Source of the DNA: Planctomycetota bacterium
Lineage (GTDB): Bacteria; Planctomycetota; UBA1135; GCA-002686595
Reading direction: 5' to 3'
NCBI GenBank assembly: GCA_009691855.1
Contig: SIAI01000003.1
Coordinates: 1-64,000, forward strand
DNA: 64,000 nucleotides
The stretch's first letter is position 1. Every line of letters starts with the position of its first letter. Below, piece by piece: positions 3,972 to 24,810 of this stretch. The notes beneath the pieces are model-generated. The model saw only the letters and a program-made list of their open reading frames with translations, had not been told where the DNA came from and did not search any database. A program made the position numbers and the translations under genes.

Positions 3972-4159
3972 CTAAAGCCAGGAGAAGACCCGCGGGTCAG
4001 GAGAACATGATGTCGCGCTGCCGCAGCCGAGGCCGCGACCGGCGCCACACTCCTCTTGCTACATCGGGGCGAAAGGGCCGGCTCATGCCCGGTTTCTCGC
4101 AAGTTCGTTCGGCGTCGAGCTTTCTGAAACCGGGTGACTCCCAGTTCAGTCATCGGCCC

Positions 4160-5742: not shown

Positions 5743-7704
5743 ATGCAATCGCGGGAAACGCGCTTCGTTTTGCGCATCGAGTCGGGGGATCGTCAGGGCG
5801 AGCAGGTGCCGCTTGCCGCGGGCAAGCTGCAGGTCGGGCGCAAGCCCGAGTGCGGCCTGGTGCTGAAGGATGGCTCGGTCTCGGGTACCCATGCCGAGTT
5901 CGTGGTCGGCGCCGAGCGCGTCGAACTGGTCGATCTCGGCAGCACGAACGGCACGCGCGTGGGCGGTCAGAAGATCGAGCGCGCCGTCCTCAGCCACGGC
6001 GACACCCTGCTCTTCGGCAACATCCGCGTCTCGCTGCACGACGCGCAGTTCGCGGGCGATGCGCCGCCGGTGCTCGAGGGTCTGCCCGCCGACCTGCCGC
6101 CGGCCGAGTCGGGCGCCCTCGGCCACGTGAGCGCTGACATGGTCAAGCGCTCGGCCGCGCGCCCCTCGCGACGCCTGCCGCTGATCCTGGGGCTCCTCAT
6201 CGTGCTCAGCGGCGGGGGCGCCGCGTACCTGCGCTTCTTCCGCCCGAGCGAACAGGGCAGCGCGCGCGTGGTTGTTCCCGCGGTGCCCGGCAACCTCCTC
6301 GCGGACGGTTCCTTCGAGGAGGGCACGGGCGAGTGGACTTCGGCCGAGGCCGCGCCGGTCGGCTTCCTGCGCGAGCGCGGCTTCGCGAACTCGGGCAACT
6401 CGGGCCTGGGGGTGAAGCTCGAGGCGGACGGCTGGTCTCTGGTGCGCTCGGCTGAGATCCCGCTGCACGCGCGCCGCGCGATCGCCTGTGCGGCCAGCCT
6501 GCGCGTGGACGGTTCGGCCGTCGGCCGCCTGGGGCTCGAGCTCTCCAGCTCGACCACGCCGGCGCTGCCGCTCTTGGCCTGGACTCCGGCGCGCGGCGCC
6601 AGCTCGGGCTTCGAGGCGCTGGAGCTCGCGCTCGACGTTCCGACGGGCTACGACCGCGCGCGCCTGGTGATCGCTGGGCGCGGTCCGGGCTCGGTGGCCG
6701 TGGACGACGTGAGCGCGCTCGAGCGCGAGCCCGCTGGCGGCGCGGCGAAGTTCCAGGAGTACGAGCTCGCCGTGCTGGGTGGTTCGACCGCGGCCTTCGT
6801 GCGCAGCGGCACGATCCTGATCGGCAACCTGGACCTCTCCGCCTGGACGCGTGAAGGCCTGCAGGGCTGGCCCTCGGGCCAGCTCGCGGTCCAGGCCGGG
6901 GCGCGCGGGTTCGAGCTCTCCTTCCCTGGCGTTCCGCCCGAGGCGCGGCTGCACTTCAAAGCTCTGCGGCCGGATGCGCAGGCCACGGGCAACACGGGCT
7001 GGGTGGCGAGCACCGGTGCCGAGGGCTATGCGGCCCACAGCGGCGACTTCACGCGCTCGGGTGTCGAGAGCCTGCTGCTCGGCAGCGGCACCGAGCTGCT
7101 CCGTCTGGGCTTCCAGAAGCCGGTCGAGGTCAGTGCGGTCAGCGTCGAGGGCGCGGTGGCCTTCTCGATCGCGCTCGCGGGCCTGACGGGTTGCGAGCTT
7201 CAGCTCACCTTCGCCGAGGAACGCGCCGAGGCCGCGACCCTCGCCGGGCAGGCCGCCGACGCCGAGCGCCGCAAGGATCTGGGCGGCGCGCTGGCGGCCT
7301 GGGGGCAGCTCCTCGACCGTTTTCCCTACGAGCGCAAGCTGGTCGCGCAGGCCACCGAGACCCGCGCGCGGCTGGTGCAGGCCGGTCTCAACCAGGTCGA
7401 CGAGCTGCGCCGTGAGCTCGAGCGCGCGCGCTTCTTCCTGCTGCCGGAGCTGTTCGCGAACGGCCGGGCGAAGGCCCTCGAACTCGCTCAGCAGTACAAG
7501 GGCAGCGAGGTCGAGCTCGAGGCCCAGAAGACGGCCGAGCAGTGCCATGTGGCGCTCACCGAGCTCCGCGCGGGCGATCGCAGCGGCGACGACCGGCGCC
7601 TGAAGGGCGTGCTCGAGGCCCTGGATCCACAGACCAACCCGCGCCTCACCGAACACGTGCGCGACGCGCTCCAGGGTGCGACCCAGGGCGGGAAGGGCAA
7701 CTAG
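5743..7704 (+). CDS. FHA-domain membrane protein with a CBM4_9-like jelly-roll and helical tail
   Basis: 653 aa from ATG 5743. An N-terminal cytoplasmic FHA domain (about residues 8-100) has the phosphothreonine-binding motifs GR (32-33), SGTH (47-50) and STNGT (67-71). A membrane helix follows at 145-165. Outside the membrane, 184-330 starts with NLLADGSFEEG and ends in VDDVS, the pattern of carbohydrate-binding CBM4_9/jelly-roll modules. A second beta-rich part follows to about 490, then a helical, TPR-like C-terminus. The protein would couple a phosphorylation signal inside (a Ser/Thr kinase gene lies 3 kb upstream) to an envelope sensor or scaffold. It is 13 bp upstream of the GspL-like gene and is probably the first gene of the operon. 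An upstream GTG (5656) is possible but adds an unconserved leader. Confidence 0.8.
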   Translation: MQSRETRFVLRIESGDRQGEQVPLAAGKLQVGRKPECGLVLKDGSVSGTHAEFVVGAERVELVDLGSTNGTRVGGQKIERAVLSHGDTLLFGNIRVSLHDAQFAGDAPPVLEGLPADLPPAESGALGHVSADMVKRSAARPSRRLPLILGLLIVLSGGGAAYLRFFRPSEQGSARVVVPAVPGNLLADGSFEEGTGEWTSAEAAPVGFLRERGFANSGNSGLGVKLEADGWSLVRSAEIPLHARRAIACAASLRVDGSAVGRLGLELSSSTTPALPLLAWTPARGASSGFEALELALDVPTGYDRARLVIAGRGPGSVAVDDVSALEREPAGGAAKFQEYELAVLGGSTAAFVRSGTILIGNLDLSAWTREGLQGWPSGQLAVQAGARGFELSFPGVPPEARLHFKALRPDAQATGNTGWVASTGAEGYAAHSGDFTRSGVESLLLGSGTELLRLGFQKPVEVSAVSVEGAVAFSIALAGLTGCELQLTFAEERAEAATLAGQAADAERRKDLGGALAAWGQLLDRFPYERKLVAQATETRARLVQAGLNQVDELRRELERARFFLLPELFANGRAKALELAQQYKGSEVELEAQKTAEQCHVALTELRAGDRSGDDRRLKGVLEALDPQTNPRLTEHVRDALQGATQGGKGN

Positions 7705-7717
7705 CTAGGGGACCGCC

Positions 7718-9346
7718 ATGGCGAAGGGCAGCGGAGTCGACGTCGGGACGTCAGCGTCCAAGTGGATCGCGGGCGAGCTCAAGGGCTCGACCTTCGTCGT
7801 GCACTCCTTCGTGCTCGCCGACAACGAGGATGGCAGCCTCGGCGGCGGCTGGGCGGCGCTTTCCGGCGAGAAGCTCGGCGGGGTGCGCGTGGGCCTGAAC
7901 GGGCGCGACCTCAACGTGCGCTACACGCGCGTGCCGCGCTTGCCCGACTGGCAGCTGCGGCGTCTGATGCGCTTCGAGACCGACGAGATCGGCGGGCAGT
8001 CGGAGGCCGAGGTGGCCTCGGACTTCAACGTCTTGCCGGAGCTGCCCGAGATCGAAGGCGAGGACGTCGTGCTGCTGGCGCTGGCGCGCGAGACGCTGCT
8101 CGCGGAGCACCAGGACGGCCTCAAGCACGCCGGCGGAAAGCTCGAGGCCTTCACGCCCAACGCGCTCGGGCTCTACAACGCCTTCCTGCGCTACGGCGTG
8201 ATCGAGGAGGAGACCGTGCTCCTCGCCGACCTCGGCCACGAGAACCTGAACGTGGTCCTGGTGCGCGGCGCGGACCTGGTCTTCGCGCGCAACCTCTCGG
8301 GCGGCTCGCGTCTGTTCGACAAGGCCATCGCCGAGCGCTTCGGCATCGACGAGGCGCGCGCACGCGCCTACAAGATCGGCGAGGGCACGCTCGACACCGG
8401 CCGGCCGTTCAAGGACCCGAACCAGGAGAAGGCCGCGCGCGCGCTGGCCGGGCCGGCGGGCCAGATCCTGTCGCTGCTGCAGTCGGCGGTCGTGTTCGCC
8501 AAGAGCCAGGTCAAGATCTCCTCGCTCAAGCTCGACCGCGTGCTCCTGTGTGGCGGCGGCGCGCGCCTGGCGGGGCTGAGCGCGTATCTCTCGCGCGGCA
8601 TGAGCGTGCCGGTCGAGCTGTTCGACCCGTTCCGCGTGGTGGACCTCTCCAAGCTCGACCCCGAGAGCGCCGAGCGCCTCGAGGCGCACAAGCTCGAGGC
8701 CGTGACCGCGCTGGGCCTGGCCACTACGGCCGCCGACCCCGACGCCTACGGCATCGAGATCCTGCCGGCCAAGGTCAAGAAGAGCCGCCAGTTCCTGGGC
8801 GGCACGCTGTTCCTGATCGGCGCCGCGGCGCTGGCGGTCGCCTTCCTCGGGCTGCGCGCATGGCGCTACCAGAGCGACCTCTCGACGCTGGAGGTCGAGC
8901 GCGCGCGCCTCGAGCGCGAGTTCCAGAGGGTCGAGCGCACCAACCGCGAGACCAAGCGCCTGCTGGAGGAGAACGAGACCCTGGCGCAGCGCGCCAACGA
9001 GCTGTTCGCGCTGGCCGGCGCCGGCGAGCAGGTCGCGCGCCTGCTGGACACGCTCGAGCGCGATCTGCCGGCCGACTTCTGGATCGCGACCGTGTCGCTC
9101 GACTGGCAGTCCGATCCCGACCTGGGCGTGCAGCGCGGCGCCGAGCGCCCGATCGTGCGCGTGCGCGGCCAATCGCGCGAGGGCACGGACAGTCCGGCGC
9201 TCCTGTTCCAGGACTTCGTGGCCGCGCTCAAGAAGCGCATGCCCGAGGCGCGCACCAAGGAACGCATGGGCGAGAGCGACTTCACGATCGACCTGTGCAT
9301 GCTGGGCGAACCGGCCGCTGCGCCCGCCGCGGAAGGAGCTCGGTAG
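7718..9346 (+). CDS. GspL-like assembly ATPase-fold protein (PilM fused to PilN-like part)
   Basis: 542 aa. Residues 1-340 are a PilM/actin-like domain: phosphate-1 loop GVDVGTSASK (6-15), phosphate-2 ADLGHENL (170-177) and adenosine motif LCGGGARLAG (277-286). A single membrane helix (359-379) leads into a periplasmic coiled coil (about 385-430) and a small alpha/beta domain like PilN. This order (cytoplasmic actin-like part, helix, periplasmic part) is that of GspL in type II secretion, whereas type IV pili usually encode PilM and PilN separately. It should form the inner-membrane assembly platform with the next gene product, recruiting the assembly ATPase encoded elsewhere. Confidence 0.87.
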   Translation: MAKGSGVDVGTSASKWIAGELKGSTFVVHSFVLADNEDGSLGGGWAALSGEKLGGVRVGLNGRDLNVRYTRVPRLPDWQLRRLMRFETDEIGGQSEAEVASDFNVLPELPEIEGEDVVLLALARETLLAEHQDGLKHAGGKLEAFTPNALGLYNAFLRYGVIEEETVLLADLGHENLNVVLVRGADLVFARNLSGGSRLFDKAIAERFGIDEARARAYKIGEGTLDTGRPFKDPNQEKAARALAGPAGQILSLLQSAVVFAKSQVKISSLKLDRVLLCGGGARLAGLSAYLSRGMSVPVELFDPFRVVDLSKLDPESAERLEAHKLEAVTALGLATTAADPDAYGIEILPAKVKKSRQFLGGTLFLIGAAALAVAFLGLRAWRYQSDLSTLEVERARLEREFQRVERTNRETKRLLEENETLAQRANELFALAGAGEQVARLLDTLERDLPADFWIATVSLDWQSDPDLGVQRGAERPIVRVRGQSREGTDSPALLFQDFVAALKKRMPEARTKERMGESDFTIDLCMLGEPAAAPAAEGAR

Positions 9347-9348
9347 AG

Positions 9349-10131
9349 ATGAACCTCGACGCCTACTGGCAAGAGAACAAGCGCTTCGTGCTGACCGTGG
9401 GCGCGGGCGGGCTCCTGTTCCTGATCGGCTTCGCGGTCGAGAGCTCGCTCTTCCAGGGCCAGGTCAACGCCGCCACGCGCCAGATCACCTACTTCCAGAA
9501 CGAGCTGAAGAAGCAGCCCTTCGGGAGCGAGGACAAGAACGCGACCGAGGCCGAGAACACCGCCCTGCGCGCCGCCGCCGACCGCCTGGCCGAGGCCGCG
9601 GCCTTCCACGCGCGGCCGGAGTTCGTGCCCGATCCGGCCAAGGGCTCGGCCGCGAATCAATACCTGCGCGCGCTGACGCGCGTGCGCGAGGAGCTCCGGC
9701 AGCGCGCCAGCCGCGCCAGGGTGGACATCGACCCCAAGCTCGGCCAGCCCGAGCTCTCGCCCACGGCCGAGGGCGAGATCCTGCGCTACCTCGAGGCGTT
9801 GGATCTGGTGGAGAGCGTCGGCGACCTGGCCATCCGCGCGCGCGCCGCGCGCATCGACAAGATCCAGGTGCGCCTCGATCCCGGCCAGGGCACACGCGCC
9901 GGCGTCGGCCCGATCGAGCGCACGCGCGTGCAGATGACGATCACCGGCTCGTCGCTCTCGATCTCGCGCCTCCTGGCCTGGACGCAGCGGCCTCTGCCGG
10001 GCGGACGCGTGCTGCTGATCGACCAGCTGGAGAGCTCGATCGCCAAGGGCAAGAAGGACGAGGTGCGCCTCGACGTGACCTTCGTGATCGCGCGCCTCCG
10101 CGAGCTCGAACCGGCGCCGGACAAAGGCTGA
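9349..10131 (+). CDS. PilO/GspM-like inner-membrane platform protein
   Basis: 260 aa from ATG 9349, with a good ribosome site (GGAAGGAG, 9331-9338) about 10 bp upstream, inside the end of the preceding gene. It has a short cytoplasmic N-terminus, a membrane helix (13-31), a helical/coiled region to about 130 and an alpha/beta C-terminal domain. Size, topology and position directly after a GspL/PilMN protein match PilO/GspM. Sequence identity to named families is too weak for a firm symbol. Confidence 0.75.
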   Translation: MNLDAYWQENKRFVLTVGAGGLLFLIGFAVESSLFQGQVNAATRQITYFQNELKKQPFGSEDKNATEAENTALRAAADRLAEAAAFHARPEFVPDPAKGSAANQYLRALTRVREELRQRASRARVDIDPKLGQPELSPTAEGEILRYLEALDLVESVGDLAIRARAARIDKIQVRLDPGQGTRAGVGPIERTRVQMTITGSSLSISRLLAWTQRPLPGGRVLLIDQLESSIAKGKKDEVRLDVTFVIARLRELEPAPDKG

Positions 10132-10132
10132 G

Positions 10133-10166
10133 CCATGAAGCTGTGCCCATGAAGCTACGCCCATGA
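10133..10166 (+). repeat. 14-bp tandem repeat forming two 5-codon mini-ORFs before the TPR gene
   Basis: The unit CCATGAAGCTGTGC (10133-10146) repeats as CCATGAAGCTACGC (10147-10160) and again as CCATGAAACT at the true start. ATG 10135 reads M-K-L-C-P-stop and ATG 10149 reads M-K-L-R-P-stop. Each TGA overlaps the next ATG (ATGA at 10149 and 10163). The chain follows four bases after the stop of the PilO-like gene and hands translation to the TPR gene. Confidence 0.7.
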
Positions 10167-12892
10167 AACTCAGACAAGAACCGATCGTCTTCGTGCTCAC
10201 CGCCGTGATCCTCGGCGCGCTCGGCTCGCGTCTCCTGGGCGCCGGAGCCTCCGGCGTGCGCGGCGGCTCGCGCGCCGGCGACAAGGCCGAGCTGAAGCAC
10301 TTCCGCGCGCCCGATCCGGCCGTGGCCATGCCCAACGGCGCAGCGCCGCCGCTGGCGCGCGAGCTGTTCGCGCCGCCGCGCGACACCGCCGCGCTGCCGC
10401 CGCTCGAGCTGGTCGAGCCGCCGCGCGAGCGCCTGTCCGCGTTGCTGCCGCCGACCGAGCCGGGCCCGGCCGCGGCGGCCTACGGCAAGCTGCTGCGCCG
10501 GCCGCTCACCAGCGTGGACCTGCCCGACCTCTTCGCCCAGACCGACACCTCGGCCGAGGTCGCCGACGCGGACTTCCAGCAGATGGCGCCCAAGGCCGGC
10601 GCCAAGCACGCGCTCGTCCCCGGTGGACCCAAGCCCAGCGACAACCCGTTCGAGCTGCTCACGCCCGACGAGCGCAGCGCGCTGATCGCGGGCTGGAAGG
10701 GCCGCTACGACTGGATCCAGCGTCCGGGCGAGCTGAAGTTCGGGCGCATCGTCAACCCCGACCGCTATGGCTTGAGCGTCGATCCCGCGCGCGCCAACGA
10801 GGCGCTGCAGTTCGTCGAGCTCGATCCCGCCACCGGGCGCGAGAAGTTCGCCAACATCAGCGCGCCGCCGATCCAGGTCGAGCGCGCTTCCATCGGCGGC
10901 TTCGACTTCGCCGCCACGGTCACGAACGAGATCGAGGTCAAGGCGCGCAAGATCGGCGGCGAGCTGACGCGCGGCTCGTTCGAGGAGTCGCTGCTCCTGG
11001 CGCGCTACTGCATCTCGAAGCGTCTCGAGGCGCCGCGCGCGCTGGAGCTCGCCGAGGAGCTCTTCAAGAACGCCGCCAAGTACGACCCCAAGGATCCGTT
11101 GCCGCGCCTCGGCCTCGGACGCTGTCTCGAGGCCGAATTCCGCTTCGAGGACGCCTTCGGCGTGTACCAGCAGCTCGAGAAGGACTTCCAGCACCGCGAG
11201 GAGGTCCAGGTGGTTCTGGCCGAGCTCGAGGAGCGCTTCCTCATGCACGCGCAAGCCGAGAAGCGCCTGCGCGAGGCGCTGGCGATGAATTCGAGCTCGT
11301 GGATCAGCCGCTTCGGCCTCGGACGCTTTCTGGTCGGGCGCGGCAAGTACGCCGAGGCGGCCGAGCACCTGAAGCTCGCCAGCAACGCGGCGCCGAACGA
11401 GCCCGAACTCCTGCCGGTGCGCGTGGCGATCCGCACCACGCTGGGCGACGCGCACTTCGCGCTGGGCGAGCTCGCCGAGGCCGAGGCCGCGTACCGCTCG
11501 GCCACGCAGGCCGACCCGCACGCGCAGCGTGCGCTGGCTGGACACCTCGCGACGCAGGCGCTGGCCGGCAAGACGCCGAGCACGAGCGGGGCGGCCGGCG
11601 ACGACGCGGGCTTCGAGCTCCTGCTGGCGCGCGGCGTGGCCGCGCTGGCCGCCGGCCAGCACGAGGCCGCGCGCGATGCGCTCGAGCTCGCCGTCGCGGC
11701 CGATCCGCTGCGCGCGCACCAGGCGCTGTCGGCGCTGTCGGTGCTGGCCGAGGTCAGCGGCAACGCCGAGGAAGCGCTGCGCTTCGCCGACGAGGCGCTC
11801 AAGCGCGATCCGACCTATCCCTTCGCGCTGTTCCAGAAGGGGCGCCTGCTGGGCCTGGCCGACGACTACGAGGGCGCGCGCGCCGCGCTGCTCGCCGCGC
11901 TGGAGCAGGAACTCGACTTCGAGGACGCGCTGGTCGCGCTGGGCGACATGGCCTTCCGGCTGGGGCGCTTCGAGGACGCCGAGCGCTACCTCGAGCGCGC
12001 GGTCTCGATCGATCCGGCGCGCGGCGAGGTGCACGCGCTGCGCGGGCTCAACCTGCTGCGCCTGGACTCCGTCGCGGCCGCGCGCGCGTCCTTCGAGAAG
12101 GCGCTGGAGCGCAAGAAGGGCGACGCCACCGCGACCGCGGGGCTGGCCTGGTGCATCTACCTCGAGGGCGACGCGACCGAAGCCCTGGTGCGCCTGGCCG
12201 ACATCGACGAGCAGCGCCGCAAGGAGCCCGAGACCGATCCCTGGCGCGTGTGGTCCAAGGCGCAGATGAAGCGCCTGCAGGAGCACCTGCAGAAGGTCGA
12301 GTGGCGCGACACCTTCAATCGCAAGCGCCTGGCCAACAGCTGGGAGATGAACGAGTCCGACGGCGTGGTCACGAGCGTGAACGAGGGCGCGGCCGAGCTC
12401 TCGGGCGTGTTCACGAAGAGCGGCCAGGGCCGCATCTACAAGCCCTTCGACGGCGGCACGTTCGTGTCCTTCGAGGCGGACCTGTGGATCGACCCGACCA
12501 AGGCCAACGCCAACATCGGCATCTTCGCCGCGCGCGAGCGCGCCGGGCGCAGCGAGAGCGAGAAGATCGCCGAGGCCGCGGTCGGGCGTCACAAGGAGGG
12601 CAACGTGCAGCTGCGCTTCCAGCGCGCTGGCCAGTCGGCCGACGTGCGCGACATGCAGCAGCCCTTCCCGACCGGACGCTGGGTGCGCGTGAAGCTCGAG
12701 CGCCGCGGCGAGTCGGCCGAGTCCACCGTGACGCTGTTCCTGGATGGCATCCCGCTGATCGAGAACCAGGCCATGCCCACGCTCGGGCAGTCGAAGTCGC
12801 AGCTCTACGTGGGCCTGTTCGCCGAGGGCGACCCCGGCCGCGAGGTGCTGGTGCGCATGGACAACGTCTCGATCGTCACCAAGCTGCAATGA
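10163..12892 (+). CDS. Membrane-anchored TPR protein with a C-terminal concanavalin-like domain
   Basis: 909 aa. An N-terminal membrane helix (about residues 12-30) is followed by a proline/alanine-rich linker. A long array of TPR-type helical pairs (about 270-700) has typical motifs such as the EALRFADEALKRDPTYPFAL and DAERYLERAVSIDPARGEVH units. From about W714 to 905 there is a beta-sandwich of the LamG/DUF1080 type (DTFNRKRLANSWEM, TGRWVRVKLERR, TLFLDGIPLIEN, VRMDNVSIV). Topology places TPRs and lectin fold outside the inner membrane. In position it replaces the pilotin or PilP/GspC-like gene of other systems. It could be a periplasmic adaptor between platform and pseudopilus. The stop overlaps the pseudopilin start (ATGA). 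Confidence 0.8.
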   Translation: MKLRQEPIVFVLTAVILGALGSRLLGAGASGVRGGSRAGDKAELKHFRAPDPAVAMPNGAAPPLARELFAPPRDTAALPPLELVEPPRERLSALLPPTEPGPAAAAYGKLLRRPLTSVDLPDLFAQTDTSAEVADADFQQMAPKAGAKHALVPGGPKPSDNPFELLTPDERSALIAGWKGRYDWIQRPGELKFGRIVNPDRYGLSVDPARANEALQFVELDPATGREKFANISAPPIQVERASIGGFDFAATVTNEIEVKARKIGGELTRGSFEESLLLARYCISKRLEAPRALELAEELFKNAAKYDPKDPLPRLGLGRCLEAEFRFEDAFGVYQQLEKDFQHREEVQVVLAELEERFLMHAQAEKRLREALAMNSSSWISRFGLGRFLVGRGKYAEAAEHLKLASNAAPNEPELLPVRVAIRTTLGDAHFALGELAEAEAAYRSATQADPHAQRALAGHLATQALAGKTPSTSGAAGDDAGFELLLARGVAALAAGQHEAARDALELAVAADPLRAHQALSALSVLAEVSGNAEEALRFADEALKRDPTYPFALFQKGRLLGLADDYEGARAALLAALEQELDFEDALVALGDMAFRLGRFEDAERYLERAVSIDPARGEVHALRGLNLLRLDSVAAARASFEKALERKKGDATATAGLAWCIYLEGDATEALVRLADIDEQRRKEPETDPWRVWSKAQMKRLQEHLQKVEWRDTFNRKRLANSWEMNESDGVVTSVNEGAAELSGVFTKSGQGRIYKPFDGGTFVSFEADLWIDPTKANANIGIFAARERAGRSESEKIAEAAVGRHKEGNVQLRFQRAGQSADVRDMQQPFPTGRWVRVKLERRGESAESTVTLFLDGIPLIENQAMPTLGQSKSQLYVGLFAEGDPGREVLVRMDNVSIVTKLQ

Positions 12893-13539: not shown

Positions 13540-13546
13540 GCATCCC

Positions 13547-14560: not shown

Positions 14561-17500
14561 TGCACTCGCCTCTGCACGCCCGACGCGGCCTGGCGATGGT
14601 CGCCGTGCTGCTGGTGCTGGTGGCGCTGTTCGTGCTCAGCGCGCCCTTCCTGGTGACCGTGCGCAACGCCGACCAGGCTTCCGGCGAGGCCGCCGACCGC
14701 GCCACGCTGCGCATCACGCTCGACGCCGCGGCGCGCCACGCGGCGGTCAAGCTGGCCGCCTCGCACCCCTCCGTCGATCCGACGCCGTACTTCGACGACG
14801 CGAGCGAGCTCGCCGTGTCGAGCGTGTTCCCGCCCGACTTCCTGCCCACCAGCGATCCGCACCAGGCGCTGTGGGGCATCGCGGCCGAGGACCTGGCCGG
14901 GCGCATCGACCTCGCCAGCGCCTCGCCGCACGTGCTGGCCAATCTGATCGGCGGCACCGCGCGCCTGACGAGCGAGTGCAAGCAGAAGGACGGCGCGCTG
15001 GAGATCAGCGACGCCGGCGGCTTGCTGAACGATGGCGTGGTGTGCGTGGACAACGAGGTCATCGGCTACGCCGAGCTCGGGCCGACGAAGCTGGCCAAGC
15101 TCTCGCGCGGCCTCCTGGTCAAGCCCGGCGCGGACGACAAGCCCTCGAGCTGCGGTCCGACGCCGCCCACGAACCACGACATCGGCGCCTTCGTGATCGA
15201 TCAGCGCGCCTGGGCGCTGTGCGAGTGGCGCATCGCGTCGGAAAAGTTCCGCGAGTACCAGGGCATCGAGCAGGTGCGCGAGGCCAAGGACTTCGTGCTC
15301 GGCACGGAGTTCGGGCGCGAGGCGTTCCTGGCCCTCGAACGCACGACCACGCCCCACGGCCACGTGCGCGCCGGTGAGCGCTGGCAGCGCGCGGCGCGCG
15401 TGACCGGCGACAGCGAGGGCGAGCCGCAGTACGGCTGCTCGCTGCCGGTCGACGATCTGCGCTGGTTCAACCCGGGCACGACGGTGTGGATCACCGACGG
15501 CGACAACGACGAGCTGGCCATGGTGCGCGGCTCGGGCGGAGGCAAGCTGGTCCTGAGCGAGCCGCTGCAGCACCCGTTCAAGGCCTGGCGCACGATCGTG
15601 GCGCCGCTGGCGCGCACGCCGGTCAACGTGAACACGGCCTCGCCCGAGGTGCTCACGGCGCTGTGGACGAACCTGAAGCTGCGCGGCAAGACGGCGCGCA
15701 TCACCGGCGGCGAGGCGCAACAGCTGGTGGACCTGGCCATCGTCTCGCGGCCGTTCACGGGCTTCGAGGACTTCCTGCGGCGCCTGGTGCTGCCCGCCGG
15801 CGGCCTCGACGAGCTGCCCGCGGACGCGGAGGTGCGCCCGGCGGCGCTGGAAGAGCTGTCGCGCCAGTCCAAGCTCGACGCGCAGGGCGCCAAGCAACTG
15901 CAGGGCTTCATCGACGCCGACGACGCGCGCGCGCTGTACAAGTGCGCGCTCAACGCCAACGACGGCGAGCTCGAGTTCGCCACCATGCCGCTGTGCTTCA
16001 CCTCGCGCGACGTGTACGAGCTCGAGCTGCGCGCGGCGCTCGACGCGCCCAGCGGCATCGAGCGCGCCCACGGCGTGCGCGTGCTGGACGAGCTCATCGT
16101 GCCGCAGCGCGATCTCCTCAGCGTGTGGACGCGCCAGGAGGACTTCGACGAGGCTCCGCGCCTGGACCTCGCCGCGGCGGCGTGGATGACCGGCCCGAAT
16201 CCGACCTCGCGCCCGGACGCCCTGTTCGGCTCCGTGGCTTCGGCGCGCTGGCCGACGCGCGCGCGCGCGCAGCTCGGCCCGCACGACACCGCGCCCTCGA
16301 TCGATCCGCTGGCCGACGAACAGACCAAGGTCTACACCTTCGCCAAGCGCGCCGACGACGACGGCTGGGCGCAGCTCGCGCCCTACCGCGAGGACGCCGC
16401 CGCGCGCCGCGCGAGCTACGCACTGCACTTCGACGACGAATCGAAGTCGCTCGAGGGCCACTACCTGCCCGACGGCACGGCACCGCTGGAGCTCGAGAAG
16501 CTGGGCTGGAACGGTGCCGGAAAATTGATGAGCGGCATGGCCTTCTCGATGTGGATCCAGCCGCGCGAGCTGGCCGACGGCGCGGTCCTGCTGGACGTGG
16601 GCGGGCAGTTCAGCGACTCGGATCGCCTGACGCTGCTGTTCGAGAAGGGCGACCTCGTGCTGCGCGTGCTGGACGGCGCCGGCGATCACCCGCAGACGAC
16701 GTTCAAAGAGCGCGCCGAGATCCACTTCCCGCTCAGCGGCGAGGGCCCGGGGATGCCGCGCGAGACCTGGTCGCACGTCGAGATCACGGTCGACGGCACG
16801 CGCCCGGACCAGATGACGCTGCTCGTGGACGGCCGTCGCGCGCCGAAGACGTATGGCCTGACGCGTCTGGTCGGCGCGGTCACGGGCGAGAGCGACACGC
16901 TGCAAGTCGAGTCCACCGACGGCTTCCCCGACAAGTGCGTGCTGCGCATCGGCAACGAGTTGATCGAGGCCGAGAAGAAGGGCCCGAAGGCGTTCCGCGC
17001 GCGCTACCAGTCGACCGGCGAGAACGCCGGCTTCGGCGGGCGCATCGCGCGCGAGCTCTTCTCCGGCTCGCCCGAGCTCAACACGGGCATCTCCAAGGCG
17101 ATCGACCACCCGAGCGGCTCGACGGTGCAGCTCTATGGCTACAGCCTGCCGATCTTCTCCAACGTGCCCAATGTCGGCAGCACGCTGCGCGACGAGCTGC
17201 CGCTGTTCGCCGTGGCGCGCGTGGTGGGTACGGTCGTCAGCGGCTCGGAGAAGGTCGAGACGCAGATGGAGGCGATCACCTTCCAGGGCGACCTGTTCAG
17301 CTCGGGCAACGGCTTCGACACGAAGGGCGATGATCTCGAGGGCCTGCTCCTTGAGACCGTCGATCCGGGCCGCAGCGTCGAGGACACCATGGGCGCCTTC
17401 AGCAAGAGCGGCGGCTACGCGGCGATCCTGGGCGTGCCCTGGCAAGACGGCAACGGCCAGCCTGCCAAGGACATGAACGGCGCGCGCGTGGGCGGTGTCG

Positions 17501-19704
17501 AGGTCGTGCGCTACAGCGGCTACGAAGGCAAGACGCTGAAGCTCGTCGAGCGCGGCGGCGCAGGACTCAAGCGCATGCAGGGCGACGGGGTCAGCCCATT
17601 CGCTGCCGGTCGCGCTTCGTTCCTCCTGTATTACGACTACCCCGTCGGCTGGACCTCGGATGGCACCTGGGAGGCACTCAACACCCGGCTGCTCTTCCAG
17701 ACCTTCATCATCCCGATCTCCGTGCCGGTGCGCGCCGCGGGCGGCGTGACCGGCTTCGAGTCGCCCGCCGAGGGCTCGGCCTTCGCGCAGATCACGCACG
17801 GCGGCGGCGAGTCGGGCAAGACCGAGTGGGTGCGCTACGACGAGATCAGCAGCGAGGGCCACCTCGTGCGCGACGATTCGCTCGGGCTGCTGGAAGCGAA
17901 TGGAGCCGCACATCCCGGGATCGACCCGGGCCGCCCGCCGCCGCCCGTGCAAGGCGGGGGGGGAGGAGGCGGCGGCGGCTTCGCGCTGCGCAGCCTGTTG
18001 CCGAGCCTCGCTCCGCGCGCGCTCGCCACGCCTCCGCCGGCCATTCCCGCGCGCCAGCAGACCGGCGGCCAGTCGTTCTGGTTCCATGCCATAGGCGCCG
18101 AGGAGGACCAGGACTTCCCCGTCGCGCGCGCGATCAACTCGCAGTTCCAGTTCCGCGGCGTGCTGGGCACGTACCAGCACGAACACTCGGCCGGCACGAT
18201 GGTCCTGCCGGTCTTCCGCACCAGCAGCCTGGACGAGACGCAGGGCTACCCCGGGCGCTTCGACGCGGTCATGTTCATGTCCTCGTTCCCCAGCGAGCCG
18301 GGCTTTCCCGGCGTCGTCCAGCACGCGCATCGGCCGTACGAGTTCCTGGCCTACGACTGGCAAGAGGGCGGCGACATCAACACGCCCCAGGCCGTGGCGG
18401 CGGCCAGCAACCTCGGGCAGACCGGCTTCCAGATCTCGCTCACCCATGTGGCCCTCGACGCGCCGCTGGCCGTGCCCTTCGCCGCTGTGCCGATCGGCGA
18501 CGCCGAGCATCCGATCGATAGCCGCCTGCTGACGCGCATGGTGCTGTTCCCTTCGGGCGAGCTGCCGCGCCAGGTCGAGAACGGACAGCTGGGTGGCGAG
18601 GCGGCGAAGAACGGCAAGGGCGGCAAGGGCGCGGTGCCCTCGGCCGTCGTGGACGAGGCGCTCTTCTACCCGAACTTCGGCGTGCAGATCTCCGGCATGC
18701 CGGGTCAGTTCGTGCTGGCGCGCTCGTTCGGCGAGAGCGCAAAGGCTTTCGAGGCCCTGGATCGCGGCCCGGAGTTCGACACCGTGCGCACCACGTTGGG
18801 CGACATCGGCTACAAGCTCGACGCGCTCGCGACGATGCCCGAGCACGGTGGCCTGTTGCGCATCGGCGACGAGCTCCTGTGCTACGACTCCTACGACAAG
18901 GCGAAGTTCGTGTTCACGCTGCCGCCGGGCGGGCGCGGCCTGAGCGGCACCGAGGTCCAGCCGCACCGGCCGGGCGAGGGCATCACCTACGTCGGCGCGC
19001 TCCCGCTGGCGATCCTGGGCGCCAAGGTCGGCGCCGACGATGCGAGCCTGCCGCTGCTCGAGTTCCCGCCGGGCTTCCCGCAAGAGGGCACAGTGTGGAT
19101 CGACGGCGAGCTCGTGCACTACACGCGCGTGCAGCAGAGAGCGCTGGAGATGCCGCGCGCCTCGCGCGAGCCGGGCGAGATGGACGCGAAGGGCCCGGGC
19201 CTGTTCCGCGGCCGCTTCGGCACGCCGCGCGCCGACCACGACGCGGGCACGCCCGTGATCCTGTTCCCCTTCCGCTACTGGGATCGCTGGGCGGACCAGG
19301 CGGATGCGCCGGAGATGGCCTACTACCAGCTCAGCTGCGAGCAGCCCGACGCCTACTGGCGGCGCGCCTTCTGGAAGGTCGGCGACTCGGGCCAGAGCGG
19401 CCCGCAGCTCGCCGTGCTGCAGCGCACGAATCAGGCGACGCCCTGGGACGCGCGGCCCGAGGGCGACAACGGCCTGCGCCTCTTCTTCGACGGCAAGATC
19501 GAGGGCGAGGGCAATCCCATGGGTGCTTCGGGCGGCGGCGTGCAGACCGATCGCGTCGAGTGGCGCGTCTTCGTGCGCCACCTGCAGGGCTCGTTCGATG
19601 CCAACAAGGGCCTGAGTCACGGCTGGAAGACCTCGCCGCGCCTGGAGCTCTTCGGCGTCGACTACATGGGACCGGGGCGCACCTTGTCGCGGGTGGATCG
19701 ATGA
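14560..19704 (+). CDS. gspK: Giant GspK-like minor pseudopilin (1714 aa) with LamG domain and repeated beta motifs
   Basis: ATG 14560 overlaps the gspH stop. The N-terminus HARRG|LAMVAVLLVLVALFVL is a prepilin signal without E at +5, as in GspK. PVNVNTASPEVLTAL at about 354-368 is the SAM-like GspK hallmark, with a second helix set near FTGFEDFLRRL. Beyond about residue 560 it exceeds every ordinary GspK (about 330 aa). It has a LamG-like domain at about 645-770 (MSGMAFSMWIQP, TWSHVEITVDG, MTLLVDGRRAPK). A recurring motif G-[DN]-E-L-hydrophobic...RG..GT....H..G occurs near 161, 793, 1432 and 1510. A Pro/Gly linker (PPPPVQ then nine G) lies near 1128, and more beta-rich sequence follows to the end. 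It should cap the pseudopilus tip with I and J and is exposed for binding. Confidence 0.85.
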   Translation: MHSPLHARRGLAMVAVLLVLVALFVLSAPFLVTVRNADQASGEAADRATLRITLDAAARHAAVKLAASHPSVDPTPYFDDASELAVSSVFPPDFLPTSDPHQALWGIAAEDLAGRIDLASASPHVLANLIGGTARLTSECKQKDGALEISDAGGLLNDGVVCVDNEVIGYAELGPTKLAKLSRGLLVKPGADDKPSSCGPTPPTNHDIGAFVIDQRAWALCEWRIASEKFREYQGIEQVREAKDFVLGTEFGREAFLALERTTTPHGHVRAGERWQRAARVTGDSEGEPQYGCSLPVDDLRWFNPGTTVWITDGDNDELAMVRGSGGGKLVLSEPLQHPFKAWRTIVAPLARTPVNVNTASPEVLTALWTNLKLRGKTARITGGEAQQLVDLAIVSRPFTGFEDFLRRLVLPAGGLDELPADAEVRPAALEELSRQSKLDAQGAKQLQGFIDADDARALYKCALNANDGELEFATMPLCFTSRDVYELELRAALDAPSGIERAHGVRVLDELIVPQRDLLSVWTRQEDFDEAPRLDLAAAAWMTGPNPTSRPDALFGSVASARWPTRARAQLGPHDTAPSIDPLADEQTKVYTFAKRADDDGWAQLAPYREDAAARRASYALHFDDESKSLEGHYLPDGTAPLELEKLGWNGAGKLMSGMAFSMWIQPRELADGAVLLDVGGQFSDSDRLTLLFEKGDLVLRVLDGAGDHPQTTFKERAEIHFPLSGEGPGMPRETWSHVEITVDGTRPDQMTLLVDGRRAPKTYGLTRLVGAVTGESDTLQVESTDGFPDKCVLRIGNELIEAEKKGPKAFRARYQSTGENAGFGGRIARELFSGSPELNTGISKAIDHPSGSTVQLYGYSLPIFSNVPNVGSTLRDELPLFAVARVVGTVVSGSEKVETQMEAITFQGDLFSSGNGFDTKGDDLEGLLLETVDPGRSVEDTMGAFSKSGGYAAILGVPWQDGNGQPAKDMNGARVGGVEVVRYSGYEGKTLKLVERGGAGLKRMQGDGVSPFAAGRASFLLYYDYPVGWTSDGTWEALNTRLLFQTFIIPISVPVRAAGGVTGFESPAEGSAFAQITHGGGESGKTEWVRYDEISSEGHLVRDDSLGLLEANGAAHPGIDPGRPPPPVQGGGGGGGGGFALRSLLPSLAPRALATPPPAIPARQQTGGQSFWFHAIGAEEDQDFPVARAINSQFQFRGVLGTYQHEHSAGTMVLPVFRTSSLDETQGYPGRFDAVMFMSSFPSEPGFPGVVQHAHRPYEFLAYDWQEGGDINTPQAVAAASNLGQTGFQISLTHVALDAPLAVPFAAVPIGDAEHPIDSRLLTRMVLFPSGELPRQVENGQLGGEAAKNGKGGKGAVPSAVVDEALFYPNFGVQISGMPGQFVLARSFGESAKAFEALDRGPEFDTVRTTLGDIGYKLDALATMPEHGGLLRIGDELLCYDSYDKAKFVFTLPPGGRGLSGTEVQPHRPGEGITYVGALPLAILGAKVGADDASLPLLEFPPGFPQEGTVWIDGELVHYTRVQQRALEMPRASREPGEMDAKGPGLFRGRFGTPRADHDAGTPVILFPFRYWDRWADQADAPEMAYYQLSCEQPDAYWRRAFWKVGDSGQSGPQLAVLQRTNQATPWDARPEGDNGLRLFFDGKIEGEGNPMGASGGGVQTDRVEWRVFVRHLQGSFDANKGLSHGWKTSPRLELFGVDYMGPGRTLSRVDR

Positions 19705-20771
19705 GCGCCGTGCGTCGCGCCGGGTTCACGCTGGTCGAGCTGCTGCTCGCCACCGCGCTGTTCTCGATCCTGATCCTGGTGCTGCTGCGCCTGGTGGACA
19801 CCTCGATGACCATCTGGAGCCGCACCGATCAGAGCCGCGAGCTGGCCGAGATCGGCGGCACGGTGATGGACATGCTGGCCGGCGACCTGCACGCGCTCGA
19901 AAGCGGCGCGCGCGGCGATCTGCTGGCCGACTGGCGGCTCCACGACCTGGATCGCGATGGCGTCGAGGGCGCGCCCGCGCAGCGCCTGCGCATGGTGCGC
20001 ACGCTGGGCGCGGCCGGGCTGCAGCGCCTCGCCAAGGGCGCGCCGGGGATGGGCTTCGAGACCTTCGAGCGCGCTCTGGCCGAGGTCGGCTGGACCTGGC
20101 TGCCGAGCGTGAGCGCGAACCTCGAGGAGCGTCCGATCGGCACCCTGCTGCGCGGTGAACGCCTGGTGGGGGACAAGGACACGCTCTCCTTCTTCGATCC
20201 GAACTTCTTCGGCGCCAGCGGCAAGCCCGTGCCCGGCAGTCTGCTCGAGGTGACCAGCGGCGTCCTGTGGTTCGACGCGTGGTTCGCCAGCCAGACCTCG
20301 CTGGTGGGCGACGCCTGGACCCTGGGCGACGAGCTCGCGCACTGCGCCGCCAGCTGGGACGCGTGGGGCAAGCAGCGCCCGAACGACGAGCTCACCTTCT
20401 TCAACCGCGCCGCGGCCGGCATGCCGCAGGCGAAGGACGTCCCGCTCCTGCCGCGGCGCCTGCGCATCGAGCTCGAGTTCGAGCGCGTCAGCGACCTGCG
20501 CTTGCGCACGCGCCTGGCGGTCGCGGCGGGCGTGGAGGACTCGCAGTTCGACGTGCGCGACGGGCGCAAGCTACCCGGCGAAGGGCGTCACCTGTTGCTC
20601 GGCGACGAGTGGGTGCGCGTCACGGCCTTGAACGAGAACCGCGTCAGCGTCGCGCGCGGCCAGCGCGGCACGAAGGCCGCGGCGCATCCGGTCGAGACCC
20701 TGGTGCACCACGGCTGGCCGGTGGTGCGCGAGGTCCCGGTGGACGTGACGCGCGAGGACTGGGACCTGTGA
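19701..20771 (+). CDS. gspJ: GspJ-type minor pseudopilin
   Basis: 356 aa; ATG 19701 overlaps the gspK stop. Signal VRRAG|FTLVE with cleavage after G8 and E13 at +5, helix LLLATALFSILILVLLRLV. Length and place between K and I fit GspJ, although most GspJ proteins are about 200 aa. Near residue 296 it carries the motif HLLLGDEWVRV...VARGQRGTKAAAHP, which recurs several times in the neighbouring giant GspK. The two proteins would therefore share a beta module at the pseudopilus tip. Confidence 0.85.
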   Translation: MSAVRRAGFTLVELLLATALFSILILVLLRLVDTSMTIWSRTDQSRELAEIGGTVMDMLAGDLHALESGARGDLLADWRLHDLDRDGVEGAPAQRLRMVRTLGAAGLQRLAKGAPGMGFETFERALAEVGWTWLPSVSANLEERPIGTLLRGERLVGDKDTLSFFDPNFFGASGKPVPGSLLEVTSGVLWFDAWFASQTSLVGDAWTLGDELAHCAASWDAWGKQRPNDELTFFNRAAAGMPQAKDVPLLPRRLRIELEFERVSDLRLRTRLAVAAGVEDSQFDVRDGRKLPGEGRHLLLGDEWVRVTALNENRVSVARGQRGTKAAAHPVETLVHHGWPVVREVPVDVTREDWDL

Positions 20772-21250
20772 GGCCCTCGCGACCCAACGCGCGCGCCGGC
20801 TTCACGCTGGTCGAGGTCGTGCTGGCGATGTTCGTGCTGCTGATCGGCATGACCTCGATCCTGGGCATGCTGTCCTTCGGCGCGGCGCTCGCGCGCACCG
20901 CGGCGCTGCGCAACGGCGCGGCCGGCGCGATCGAGGCCATCGTGGCCGACCTCGAGGAGCGGCACTTTCCGCTCGAGCTCGACGAGCAGGGCGACGAGGT
21001 CGCCGGCGACCCGACCGACGTCGTGGACCGTCCCGTGCCCGGCTTCGCGGGCCTGAGCTACGGCACGCACTCCACGCCCAACCCCGAGAACCCGCTGGAG
21101 TACCGCGTGGACGTGGAGATGCGCTGGACCACCGGCGGCACCACGCGCACGAAGAGCTTCCGCACCCTGCTGCTGCGCGAGGTGCCCTTCGGCGAGCGCC
21201 TGCGTCAGCGCCTCGTCGAGCACAAGACGCCGCAGAAGAAGAAGGAATGA
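20768..21250 (+). CDS. gspI: GspI-type minor pseudopilin
   Basis: 160 aa from GTG 20768, overlapping the gspJ stop (GTGA). Signal PNARAG|FTLVE (cut after G11, E16 at +5) and helix VVLAMFVLLIGMTSILGML are typical of GspI/PilV. The C-terminal half (YRVDVEMRWTTGGTTRTKSFRTLLL) matches the GspI pattern of a strand ending in V.V.W..G...... It should nucleate the tip complex with J and K. The pseudopilin order G-H-K-J-I differs from the common G-H-I-J-K, and I and K are exchanged. Confidence 0.87.
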   Translation: MRPSRPNARAGFTLVEVVLAMFVLLIGMTSILGMLSFGAALARTAALRNGAAGAIEAIVADLEERHFPLELDEQGDEVAGDPTDVVDRPVPGFAGLSYGTHSTPNPENPLEYRVDVEMRWTTGGTTRTKSFRTLLLREVPFGERLRQRLVEHKTPQKKKE

Positions 21251-22818
21251 GCCCCATGAAGATCGCCCCGTACCTGGTCGTCTCGTTCTTCGCCGCGCTG
21301 GCGCTCGCCGAGCGACCCGCGGCCCAGGAAGCCGCCGCCGCCGCGCCCAGCACGATGCTGCGCCTGAAGAGCGGCGCGATCGCCTTCGGCTCGATCCTCG
21401 CGCACGACCCGGAGGGCATCCATTTCAGGCTGCTGGAGAACGGCGGCGAGGTGCCGCTGCCGTGGGGCGTGCTCGACCCGACCGAGGCCGAGGAGATGCG
21501 CCTGCGCTACGGCTACGTCGAGGCCGAGGCCGAGGAGCTCTTGATCGACGCCGACCGGCTGCAGCTCGCCGACGGCCGCGAGCTCGTCGGGCGCATCGTC
21601 AACCGCACCGACACGCACCTGTGGATCAAGCGCGCGGAGGCCACCGTGCCGATCGCCAAGAACGACGTGCGCGGCGCGATCACCAACGTGCAGGCGCCGG
21701 CGCTGGACATCTTCACCAAGGAGGAGCTGTACCAGGACAAGGCCTTCGAGCTGCAGGGCCGGCTCGGAGCCCAGGGCCGTCCGGGGGCCGCGGCGCACGA
21801 CGAGCTGGCGAAGTTCTCCGAGCGTCTGTTCGACTTCGCGCACGCGCTCGAGCACTACCAGCGCGCGGCCGAGCGCGACCCCGCCTACGACGCCACGCGC
21901 CTCGAGCAAGCCATCGCGCGCTGCAAGGAGAAGGCGGCCCTGCAGCAGCAGGTCGACCACCTGGCCGAGATCGACCTGCGCCGCGCGCAGAAGCGCTACG
22001 ACAAGGCGATCGAGCTCATGGGCCAGTTTCGCGCGCTGTATCCGAAGAGCCCGCTGCTCACGGACCTCGCCAAGCTGCAGGACCGCGTGGCCAAGTCGCA
22101 GGAGCGCGACCTGCGCGAGGCGATCATCAGCCGCTGGCATTTCTGGACCTTGCGCCTGGCGCGCGAGGCCGGGCGCAAGACGAACTTCGAGGAGGTCCAG
22201 GGCTACCTCGACGAGAAGATGGGCGAGGACATCGCGCAGAAGGTGCGCGCCGACGTGCTCACGATCGCGCCCAAGATCGAGGCCGACCAGGTGCGGCGCC
22301 TGTGGGGTGCGCGCAAGGGCGGCGACTACCACCTGGCGACCTACAGCCTGGGCACCTGGCTGCTGGGCGAGGGTGCGCGCGCCGAGCTCGACCAGACCAA
22401 GGAGAAGAAGGAAGCGGAGCCCGAGAAGGGCACCCAGTCGGAGGCGCGCAAGCGCCTGGAGGAGCGCATCAAGCGCTACATCGACAACCAGAAGCTCACG
22501 CGCCAGCAGGCGCAGCAGGACGACAAGAGCGAGGACCCGCAGGCCTTCTGGGAGGGCTGGAACTCGGCCGGCCGCGCGCAGTGGATCCTGGCCTACTACG
22601 CCGAGAAGGCGGGCGACTTCCGCGACCTGGTGGCGCGCTTCGAGAACTGCCGCGAGTGCGGCGGGACCGGCGCGCGGGACCTGCTCTTCGCCGGCAACGC
22701 GGGCAACGCCCAGAACGGCGCCAACGGCAAGGTGGGCGGCGGACAGGCCGGTGAGGTGCTCGTGCCCTGTCCGACCTGCCACACGATCGGCATCGTGCGC
22801 CGCGTGCGCTATCGTTAG
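21247..22818 (+). CDS. Exported TPR protein with a C-terminal CxxC..CxxC zinc-finger
   Basis: 523 aa; ATG 21247 overlaps the gspI stop, and a second ATG at 21256 is equally possible. A signal peptide (PYLVVSFFAALALA) ends near residue 25-30. Two SHD1/SH3-like beta segments follow (MLRLKSGAIAFGSIL; LQLADGRELVGRIVNRTDTHLWIK), then helical repeats with a DPAYDATRLEQA-type TPR and a Lys/Glu-rich helix. The C-terminus has CRECGGTG (about C468-C471) and CPTCHTIG (about C508-C511), two halves of a DnaJ-type zinc finger separated by a Gly/Asn-rich loop. No named family. It is translationally linked to the pseudopilin genes, so a role in this system is likely. Confidence 0.75.
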   Translation: MSPMKIAPYLVVSFFAALALAERPAAQEAAAAAPSTMLRLKSGAIAFGSILAHDPEGIHFRLLENGGEVPLPWGVLDPTEAEEMRLRYGYVEAEAEELLIDADRLQLADGRELVGRIVNRTDTHLWIKRAEATVPIAKNDVRGAITNVQAPALDIFTKEELYQDKAFELQGRLGAQGRPGAAAHDELAKFSERLFDFAHALEHYQRAAERDPAYDATRLEQAIARCKEKAALQQQVDHLAEIDLRRAQKRYDKAIELMGQFRALYPKSPLLTDLAKLQDRVAKSQERDLREAIISRWHFWTLRLAREAGRKTNFEEVQGYLDEKMGEDIAQKVRADVLTIAPKIEADQVRRLWGARKGGDYHLATYSLGTWLLGEGARAELDQTKEKKEAEPEKGTQSEARKRLEERIKRYIDNQKLTRQQAQQDDKSEDPQAFWEGWNSAGRAQWILAYYAEKAGDFRDLVARFENCRECGGTGARDLLFAGNAGNAQNGANGKVGGGQAGEVLVPCPTCHTIGIVRRVRYR

Positions 22819-22822
22819 CGCG

Positions 22823-23893: not shown

Positions 23894-23942
23894 GGCCCGC
23901 GCTTGATCTCCCTTCACGGGTAGTCGATCCTCTGCGCCCGCA

Positions 23943-24584: not shown

Positions 24585-24810
24585 TCTTCTACTCGCATGA
24601 GTCTTCGTCTGGCGCGAGCGTTTCGGCACCGGAAGAGCGAGATGCACCGCGGAGGACGCGGAGAGGCGCAGAGGAAGAGAGGAACTGAGGAAGTAAGGAC
24701 GGGGGCCTCCCGGGTCGAACCCTGTTCGCCTACTCCGCGTTCCCCCGCGTCTCCGCCGTGCGCTTTTCCTCCGTTTGGGTTGCGGGCAGGGCCCGCGCCG
24801 AGAGCGCGAG
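24581..24810. repeat. GCGGAGG-type palindromic repeat, copy A
   Basis: About 230 bp closely matching copy C at 60099-60318, starting at the same base (CTGATCTTCTACTCGC, which includes the scpB stop). The left half has CCGCGGAGGACGCGGAGAGG (24647-24666) and the right half CTCCGCGTTCCCCCGCGTCT (24733-24752), roughly complementary. The centre GGGGGCCTCCCGGG (24700-24713) is shared with copy B. No ORF or transposase lies inside, so it resembles a non-autonomous palindromic element. Confidence 0.8.

What the first reader, a model, noticed from the sequence alone, without database searches (positions are those of the whole stretch)
5743..22818. A pseudopilus operon decorated with lectin-like folds at four points
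Seen: the FHA protein has a CBM4_9-like module, the TPR protein a concanavalin-like C-terminus, the GspH-type pseudopilin a LamG-like insert, and the 1714-aa GspK-type pseudopilin another LamG-like region. Known: the core genes (GspL-like, GspM-like, G, H, I, J, K) build a type II secretion pseudopilus. Inference: this is a specialised secretion or adhesion machine whose periplasmic scaffold and tip bind glycans, possibly for handling large polysaccharides. The absence of secretin, ATPase, GspF and peptidase genes suggests a second locus provides the motor. I know of no described system with this set of fusions.
Basis: partly seen in the sequence, partly recalled or inferred. Interest (0 to 1): 0.8.

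Follow-up and report, generated by a model that had tools for sequence, protein, structure and literature searches.

The report
Planctomycete secretion pseudopilus with lectin-like modules
A conserved ten-gene operon found across many lineages of the phylum Planctomycetota encodes half of a type II protein secretion machine whose pilus-like piston and scaffold carry built-in lectin-shaped domains, including a tip protein five times the usual size; the rest of the machine sits at a second locus, and what the extra domains grip is unknown.

Summary
Window 5743-22818 is one operon: FHA protein, GspL (PilM-type), GspM, TPR protein, GspG, GspH, giant GspK (1714 aa), GspJ, GspI and a TPR/zinc-ribbon protein. 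All four lectin-like folds check out: a CBM16-type sandwich in the FHA protein (AlphaFold/Foldseek), a ConA-like PF06439 domain on the TPR protein, a LamG inserted into the GspH pilin fold, and a more divergent LamG in GspK. Gene order and folds are kept across the whole class (giant GspK in 53 of 53 good genomes) and in 17 of 20 sampled loci outside it. The missing motor is at a second locus, gspD-E-F plus four pseudopilins but no K, L or M. Best reading: a type II secretion system split over two loci with an enlarged, module-bearing pseudopilus tip. Also found: an unreported ~60-residue repeat, five copies in GspK and one in GspJ, resembling a phage/GTA tail-protein domain. LamG-bearing pilins are already known (PilC of Streptococcus sanguinis), so this is a new variant of a known kind; I found no description of the combination.

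The parts
5743..7704 (+). FHA protein: cytoplasmic FHA domain (res 8-100), transmembrane helix (145-165), CBM16-like beta-sandwich (185-345), second beta domain (345-487), helical solenoid (491-647)
   Evidence: Pfam FHA 6e-16; AlphaFold pLDDT 86; Foldseek PDB
6295..6777 (+). CBM16/CBM4_9-like jelly roll of the FHA protein (res 185-345)
   Evidence: Foldseek to 2zew/2zey/3oea, target TM about 0.8; no Pfam hit
7718..9346 (+). GspL-type protein: PilM actin-like domain, transmembrane helix, periplasmic part
   Evidence: PilM_2 5.7e-16; Amuc_1101 family 4.8e-37, below cut-off
9349..10131 (+). GspM-like protein
   Evidence: position and topology; no family hit; conserved in synteny
10163..12892 (+). 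Membrane-anchored TPR protein with ConA-like C-terminal domain
   Evidence: TPR 6.9e-30
12275..12889 (+). ConA-like domain (PF06439) at the TPR protein C-terminus
   Evidence: 29.6 bits, cut-off 26.8
12889..13539 (+). GspG major pseudopilin, long form (216 aa), with an acidic GEDGRFGTEDD C-terminus
   Evidence: N_methyl, T2SSG 1.4e-5; TIGR01710 1.4e-11, below cut-off
13547..14560 (+). GspH pseudopilin with LamG inserted into the pilin fold
   Evidence: N-terminus matches classical GspH P 7e-14, C-terminus collinear P 5e-4
14012..14362 (+). LamG insert of GspH (res 156-272)
   Evidence: Laminin_G_3; PDB profile hits
14560..19704 (+). Giant GspK (1714 aa), predicted pseudopilus tip; leader lacks Glu5 as in GspK
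   Evidence: NF037980 in 17 of 19 homologues, best 6.6e-11; T2SSK in 10 of 19
16417..16899 (+). LamG-like region of GspK (res 620-780), divergent
14992..15225 (+). RG/GT repeat copy 1 in GspK (res 145-222)
   Evidence: hhalign P 2e-12 to copies 2 and 5
16897..17157 (+). RG/GT repeat copy 2 in GspK (res 780-866)
   Evidence: hhalign P 1.3e-13 to copy 5
18148..18225 (+). RG/GT repeat copy 3 in GspK, partial (res 1197-1222)
   Evidence: hhalign P 3e-7 to copy 5
18823..19005 (+). RG/GT repeat copy 4 in GspK (res 1422-1482)
   Evidence: hhalign P 2.4e-8 to copy 5
19057..19275 (+). RG/GT repeat copy 5 in GspK (res 1500-1572)
   Evidence: Rcc01698_C in 2 of 19 homologues, best 1.1e-6, position not shown
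19701..20771 (+). GspJ minor pseudopilin
   Evidence: N_methyl 8.8e-6
20553..20750 (+). RG/GT repeat copy in GspJ (res 285-350)
   Evidence: hhalign P 1.3e-7 and 1.9e-6 to GspK copies 4 and 5
20768..21250 (+). GspI minor pseudopilin (GTG start)
   Evidence: N_methyl 3.2e-5; XpsI model 9.3e-6, below cut-off
21247..22818 (+). Signal-peptide TPR protein with C-terminal zinc-ribbon-like CRECGGTG...CPTCH
   Evidence: sequence; TPR 2e-4; kept in the operon

Best explanation
The operon encodes the assembly-platform and pseudopilus half of a type II secretion system of Planctomycetota, split over two loci. The other locus supplies the outer-membrane secretin GspD, the motor ATPase GspE, the platform protein GspF and a classical G-H-I-J set, but no K, L or M. 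This operon supplies GspL, GspM and the genome's only detectable GspK, plus its own G, H, I and J. GspE, anchored by GspL, would polymerise the pseudopilus under a GspI-J-K tip and push substrates through GspD (mechanism known from other T2SS, inferred here). GspK carries about 1150 extra residues, including a LamG fold and repeat modules, and GspH carries a LamG inserted into its pilin fold, so the tip is unusually large. Two membrane-anchored proteins (FHA-CBM16-solenoid and TPR-ConA) add similar sandwich domains on the periplasmic side, and the FHA domain could couple assembly to Ser/Thr phosphorylation. Most likely the sandwich domains are protein- or substrate-gripping modules that help build the tip, select cargo and plug or open the channel. 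Shown: gene content, folds, conservation and the complementary second locus. Inferred: physical assembly into one machine, and the roles of the domains.
For: Synteny: in 20 loci from the order and in 61 contigs from a named genome collection, nearly all Planctomycetota, the detected genes keep one order, up to contig ends. Giant GspK is in 145 of 151 class genomes and 53 of 53 good ones. Seventeen of 20 loci outside the class have the same operon. Complementarity: the own genome has one GspK-family match. Its PilM-type proteins are this one, that of the separate T4P pilMNOQ cluster on C51, and one weak match. gspE-F-G-H-I-J on contig C62 is followed directly by serS, with no K. In 12 class genomes D-E-F is together, followed by four pseudopilins in 11; the secretin family was confirmed for two. 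The GspF orthologue is present 16 of 16 times. Folds. Insertion of LamG into the GspH pilin.
Against: The window G, H, I and J duplicate those of the other locus, so two distinct pseudopili sharing one motor are also possible on gene content. Fit of a roughly 180-kDa GspK inside a GspD channel is not tested. The own-genome gspD is off the end of contig C62, and the genome has other secretins. Three loci outside the class have GspK without operon neighbours (L202, L203, L209). GspC and the prepilin peptidase were not searched for.
Confidence: 0.6

Rival explanations
1. Two machines sharing one motor: the D-E-F-G-H-I-J locus runs an ordinary T2SS, and the window operon builds a second, specialised pseudopilus with its own G-H-I-J-K on the same GspE/F/D.
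For: Complete duplication of G, H, I and J. The window GspG is longer and only weakly T2SSG-like, whereas C62 GspG is classical. L and M are encoded with the decorated set.
Against: The D-E-F locus has no K, L or M of its own, and the genome has only one detectable GspK, so an independent ordinary T2SS would lack required parts.
Confidence: 0.25
2. A surface fibre for polysaccharide capture: the pseudopilus extends as a pilus and its lectin tip binds extracellular glycans for uptake, as suggested for the dextran-binding fibres of Planctomycetes.
For: Dextran binds pili-like fibres arising from crateriform pits in Planctopirus and Gemmata (PMC5394234). A ConA-like lectin pilin is a proven glycan binder (PMC9934059). 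Sandwich folds of carbohydrate-binding type are present.
Against: FHA and TPR proteins are inner-membrane anchored, so half of the sandwiches cannot be on a surface fibre. Many highly complete phylum genomes lack the giant GspK or match only weakly, and the organisms in which fibres were seen were not identified among carriers. No binding data exist.
Confidence: 0.12
3. Unrelated domain shuffling: LamG-type domains are common, and four in one operon have no joint meaning.
For: Planctomycetota carry LamG domains elsewhere; the own genome has seven Laminin_G_3 stretches at E<=1e-3.
Against: The same domains at the same points are kept over the class and, for the three ConA-like ones, in 15 of 17 operons outside it. 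Seven stretches in 4.28 Mb is not a high base rate.
Confidence: 0.03

Closest known systems
Type II secretion system (Gsp/Xcp/Pul)
   Same: GspG, H, I, J, K pseudopilins, GspL- and GspM-type platform proteins; gspD-E-F at a second locus
   Different: Split over two loci; GspL is PilM-type; GspK is 1714 aa (NCBIfam model 307 positions) with LamG and repeats; LamG inside GspH; extra FHA, TPR-ConA and zinc-ribbon proteins; duplicated G, H, I, J
Modular pilins, e.g. PilC of Streptococcus sanguinis type 4 pili (PMC9934059; survey in PMC8179133)
   Same: A ConA-like module joined to a pilin, predicted at the filament tip; pilins with PF13385 are listed in the survey
   Different: There the module follows a short pilin part in a surface pilus; here LamG lies between two halves of a GspH pilin fold and in a giant GspK, in a T2SS-type operon with similar domains in two non-pilin partners
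Verru_Chthon cassette proteins A-D (TIGR02596, TIGR02598-TIGR02600)
   Same: Weak matches of GspJ, GspI, GspG and GspH to cassette C, B and D models and of 2 of 19 GspK homologues to cassette A (E 0.027)
   Different: All far below curated cut-offs; no paper found
Akkermansia Amuc_1098-1102 pili-like cluster (PMC5332112)
   Same: PilM-type protein related to Amuc_1101 (E 4.8e-37), in the same superphylum
   Different: Far below the family cut-off (128 vs 650 bits); that cluster has a secretin and no LamG pseudopilins that I know of
Rcc01698_C (C-terminal domain of a gene transfer agent tail protein)
   Same: Matches 2 of 19 GspK homologues (best 1.1e-6) and weakly one outside the class; Foldseek hits among viral models include phage structural and baseplate proteins
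   Different: Only a small repeated module is shared, not the whole protein

Membership tests
Type II secretion system | Major pseudopilin GspG with class III leader | tested here: met
   N_methyl and T2SSG above gathering cut-offs; TIGR01710 below its cut-off
Type II secretion system | Minor pseudopilins H, I, J | tested here: met
   Leaders and gene order; GspH N-terminus matches classical GspH P 7e-14; I and J by leader and position only
Type II secretion system | GspK: leader without Glu5 and T2SSK domain | tested here: met
   Leader RRGLAMVAVLLV; T2SSK 26.7 bits with neighbours, cut-off 24.2; NF037980 in 17 of 19, window protein below cut-off
Type II secretion system | GspL and GspM platform proteins | tested here: inconclusive
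   PilM_2 plus transmembrane helix fits GspL; GspM has no family hit, assigned by position
Type II secretion system | GspD, GspE, GspF in the same genome | tested here: met
   Own genome and C62; joint locus in 12 class genomes
Type II secretion system | GspC and prepilin peptidase | not tested
   No search run for either
Type II secretion system | Secretes folded proteins through GspD | not testable with these tools
   Needs experiment
Modular lectin pilin (PilC-like) | ConA-superfamily domain joined to a pilin | tested here: met
   GspH: 15 of 19 homologues, PDB hits, insertion
Modular lectin pilin (PilC-like) | Demonstrated glycan binding | not testable with these tools
   Aromatic positions conserved in the domains were listed but not assigned to a binding site
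Carbohydrate-binding module family 16 | Fold | tested here: met
   Target TM about 0.80 to 2zew/3oea
Carbohydrate-binding module family 16 | Ligand-binding residues | tested here: inconclusive
   Trp198 and Trp280 are 93-97% aromatic in 30 homologues; equivalence to binding residues not established
3-keto-disaccharide hydrolase (PF06439) | Family membership of the TPR C-terminal domain | tested here: inconclusive
   Above cut-off for the window protein, but only 7 of 29 homologues match at E 0.05; catalysis not tested
Verru_Chthon cassette A | Curated score | tested here: not met
   2 of 19, E 0.027

The most novel reading that the evidence does not exclude
The giant GspK extension is a new kind of pseudopilus tip: a compact piston head or plug of about 1000 residues, built from repeats related to phage-tail modules and from lectin sandwiches, defining a Planctomycetota-specific class of T2SS that handles very large or glycosylated cargo across the unusually wide planctomycete periplasm.
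Probability: 0.2. Interest if true: 0.85.

Novelty: new variant of a known kind. Interest (0 to 1): 0.6.

Why it matters
Planctomycetota degrade and take up large polymers by means that are still poorly explained, and their secretion machines are little studied. This operon is near-universal in one whole class and common across the phylum, so it is probably a major envelope machine. It gives a defined set of parts for testing how these bacteria move large molecules, and its GspK shows how far a pseudopilus tip can grow. A phage-tail-like repeat in a pseudopilus tip also hints at parts shared between two kinds of envelope-crossing machine.

Tried and rejected
A GspK alignment over all families was too divergent for the pattern search, so a family-level one was used. 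Pfam on the FHA protein and its homologues found no CBM; only the structure showed it. PDB sequence profiles gave nothing for the TPR ConA domain and nothing convincing for the FHA sandwich. The idea that the GspK C-terminus is a GspJ-like pilin sheet was tested by hhalign and not supported. A proposed repeat copy near GspK residue 1075 was not supported. A link to the upstream Ser/Thr kinase was checked: found upstream in only three of ten loci, so not counted as part. Crateriform pits as the location of this machine were considered and not adopted, for lack of evidence.
Full report
What is there. The window lies in a 71% G+C draft genome of 4.28 Mb. Named contigs with the same operon are almost all Planctomycetota, among them strain Pla86 (CP036296, L106) and UBA1135 (L141). 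Ten genes on the + strand, 5743-22818, run almost without gaps and often overlap: FHA protein, PilM-type GspL, GspM, TPR protein, GspG, GspH, GspK, GspJ, GspI and a TPR/zinc-ribbon protein. Pfam and NCBIfam support FHA, PilM, TPR, the prepilin leaders, GspG and GspK. Many scores are below curated cut-offs, so several assignments rest on order and conservation as well.

The four lectin-like folds. The FHA protein modelled at pLDDT 86: FHA, membrane helix, a beta-sandwich at residues 185-345, a second beta domain, a helical solenoid. Foldseek matches the sandwich to carbohydrate-binding module family 16 (target TM about 0.8) and CBM61, although Pfam finds no CBM in any of 18 homologues. The TPR protein's last 205 residues match PF06439, a ConA-like family, above the cut-off when scanned alone. 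GspH has Laminin_G_3 in 15 of 19 homologues, and its profile finds laminin, pappalysin and neurexin structures. In GspK a LamG at about 620-780 is weaker: 6 of 19 homologues in Pfam, Foldseek E of 0.002 or more with target TM below 0.5, although the domain-sized hits are sandwiches of this kind (CBM40, laminin LG, agrin, and the jelly-roll part of clostridial receptor-binding domains). The LamG regions of GspK, GspH and the TPR protein recognise each other in profile comparison (P 2.6e-5, 2e-5, 3.2e-4).

GspK 560-1714 was predicted with pLDDT 85 and pTM 0.83, so it is one well-defined assembly. No PDB structure matches it below E 0.001. GspK contains a repeated module with the pattern IGxExxxY ... 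RGxxGTxxxxHxxGxxV. Profile-profile comparison links copies at residues 145-222, 780-866, 1422-1482 and 1500-1572, a partial copy near 1200, and one copy in GspJ (285-350), with P from 1e-6 to 1e-13 for the better pairs, while a control segment of the GspK core matches none. Two homologues match Pfam Rcc01698_C, from a gene transfer agent tail protein, and the viral structure library gives phage structural and baseplate proteins, by local matches only.

Conservation. In 20 loci from several families of the order the detected genes are always in the same order; the few misses are at contig ends or below the BLAST threshold. The same is true of the named contigs. Giant GspK is found in 145 of 151 class genomes and all 53 of good quality. 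In the phylum, 183 of 244 genomes match, with E below 1e-40 in 37 family-level lineages outside the class by my count of the table; others match weakly or not at all. Of 20 loci drawn outside the class, 17 have the operon, 15 of them with all three ConA-like domains detected; three have GspK without the neighbours. In one family with weak matches (L229-L231) PilM, TPR and GspG are in order but no ConA or LamG is detected, so undecorated relatives exist at the edge of the distribution.

The rest of the machine. The window has no D, E or F; these lie elsewhere in the genome. Contig C62 carries gspE, gspF and classical G, H, I, J followed by serS, and its beginning is only 243 bases before gspE. 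In 12 class genomes the orthologous locus has gspD directly before gspE and, in 11, four pseudopilins after gspF; the GspF orthologue is present in 16 of 16 genomes. The own genome has a single GspK-family match, the one in the window, and apart from the type IV pilus PilM and one weak match no other PilM-type GspL. The two loci are therefore complementary: one has D, E, F, the other L, M, K, and both have G, H, I, J.

Mechanism. Best supported: one T2SS split over two loci, with an enlarged tip and platform (0.6). The main rival is two pseudopili sharing a motor (0.25). The pushing mechanism is taken from known T2SS and is inference here. Whether the sandwiches bind glycans, cargo or each other is open. 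Because two of the four are in inner-membrane-anchored proteins and the set is kept in very different genomes, I favour a role in assembly, cargo recognition or channel gating over capture of one external polysaccharide.

Comparison with the literature. Modular pilins with PF13385 modules are known and widespread (PMC8179133), and S. sanguinis PilC is a glycan-binding ConA-like example (PMC9934059). Dextran-binding pili-like fibres of Planctomycetes are reported (PMC5394234), but nothing here connects them to this operon. Searches for planctomycete pseudopilins, pseudopilin plus LamG, and planctomycete GspK found no description of this system, within the limits of an open-licence library. Hence a new variant of a known kind.

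Limits. Genome handles outside the named contigs are anonymous, so lineages lacking the system could not be named. The genome is a draft, 91% complete. Structure prediction was limited to two jobs, so GspH and the TPR domain rest on sequence profiles.

Noticed in passing
window 14992-19275 and 20553-20750: A repeat module shared by GspK (five copies) and GspJ (one), related to a gene-transfer-agent/phage tail domain
   Followed up: partly
window 1500-2595: Ser/Thr kinase-like protein ending at 2595, upstream of the FHA operon; found upstream in three of ten relatives checked, so a kinase-FHA coupling is possible but not universal
   Followed up: partly
window 2663-4756: A peptidase-like TPR protein (399 aa, HELTH motif) and RadC lie upstream and, with scpB downstream, keep their place beside the operon in many relatives
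   Followed up: partly
window 21247-22818: 523-aa secreted TPR protein with a C-terminal DnaJ-like zinc-ribbon motif, kept as the last operon gene; role unknown
   Followed up: no
window 22818-26894: Two PpiC/SurA-type chaperone-like proteins with scpB between them directly downstream of the operon
   Followed up: no
L202, L203, L209: Giant LamG-bearing GspK without the operon neighbours within 10 kb, in lineages outside the class
   Followed up: no
L229, L230, L231: A reduced cluster PilM - TPR protein - GspG without detectable LamG/ConA domains in one family of the phylum, possibly an undecorated relative
   Followed up: partly
L025 6354-8939 and 12141-14777: Two large lipoprotein-like secretins with a 946-aa ORF between them, not part of the D-E-F locus; partner system unknown
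   Followed up: no
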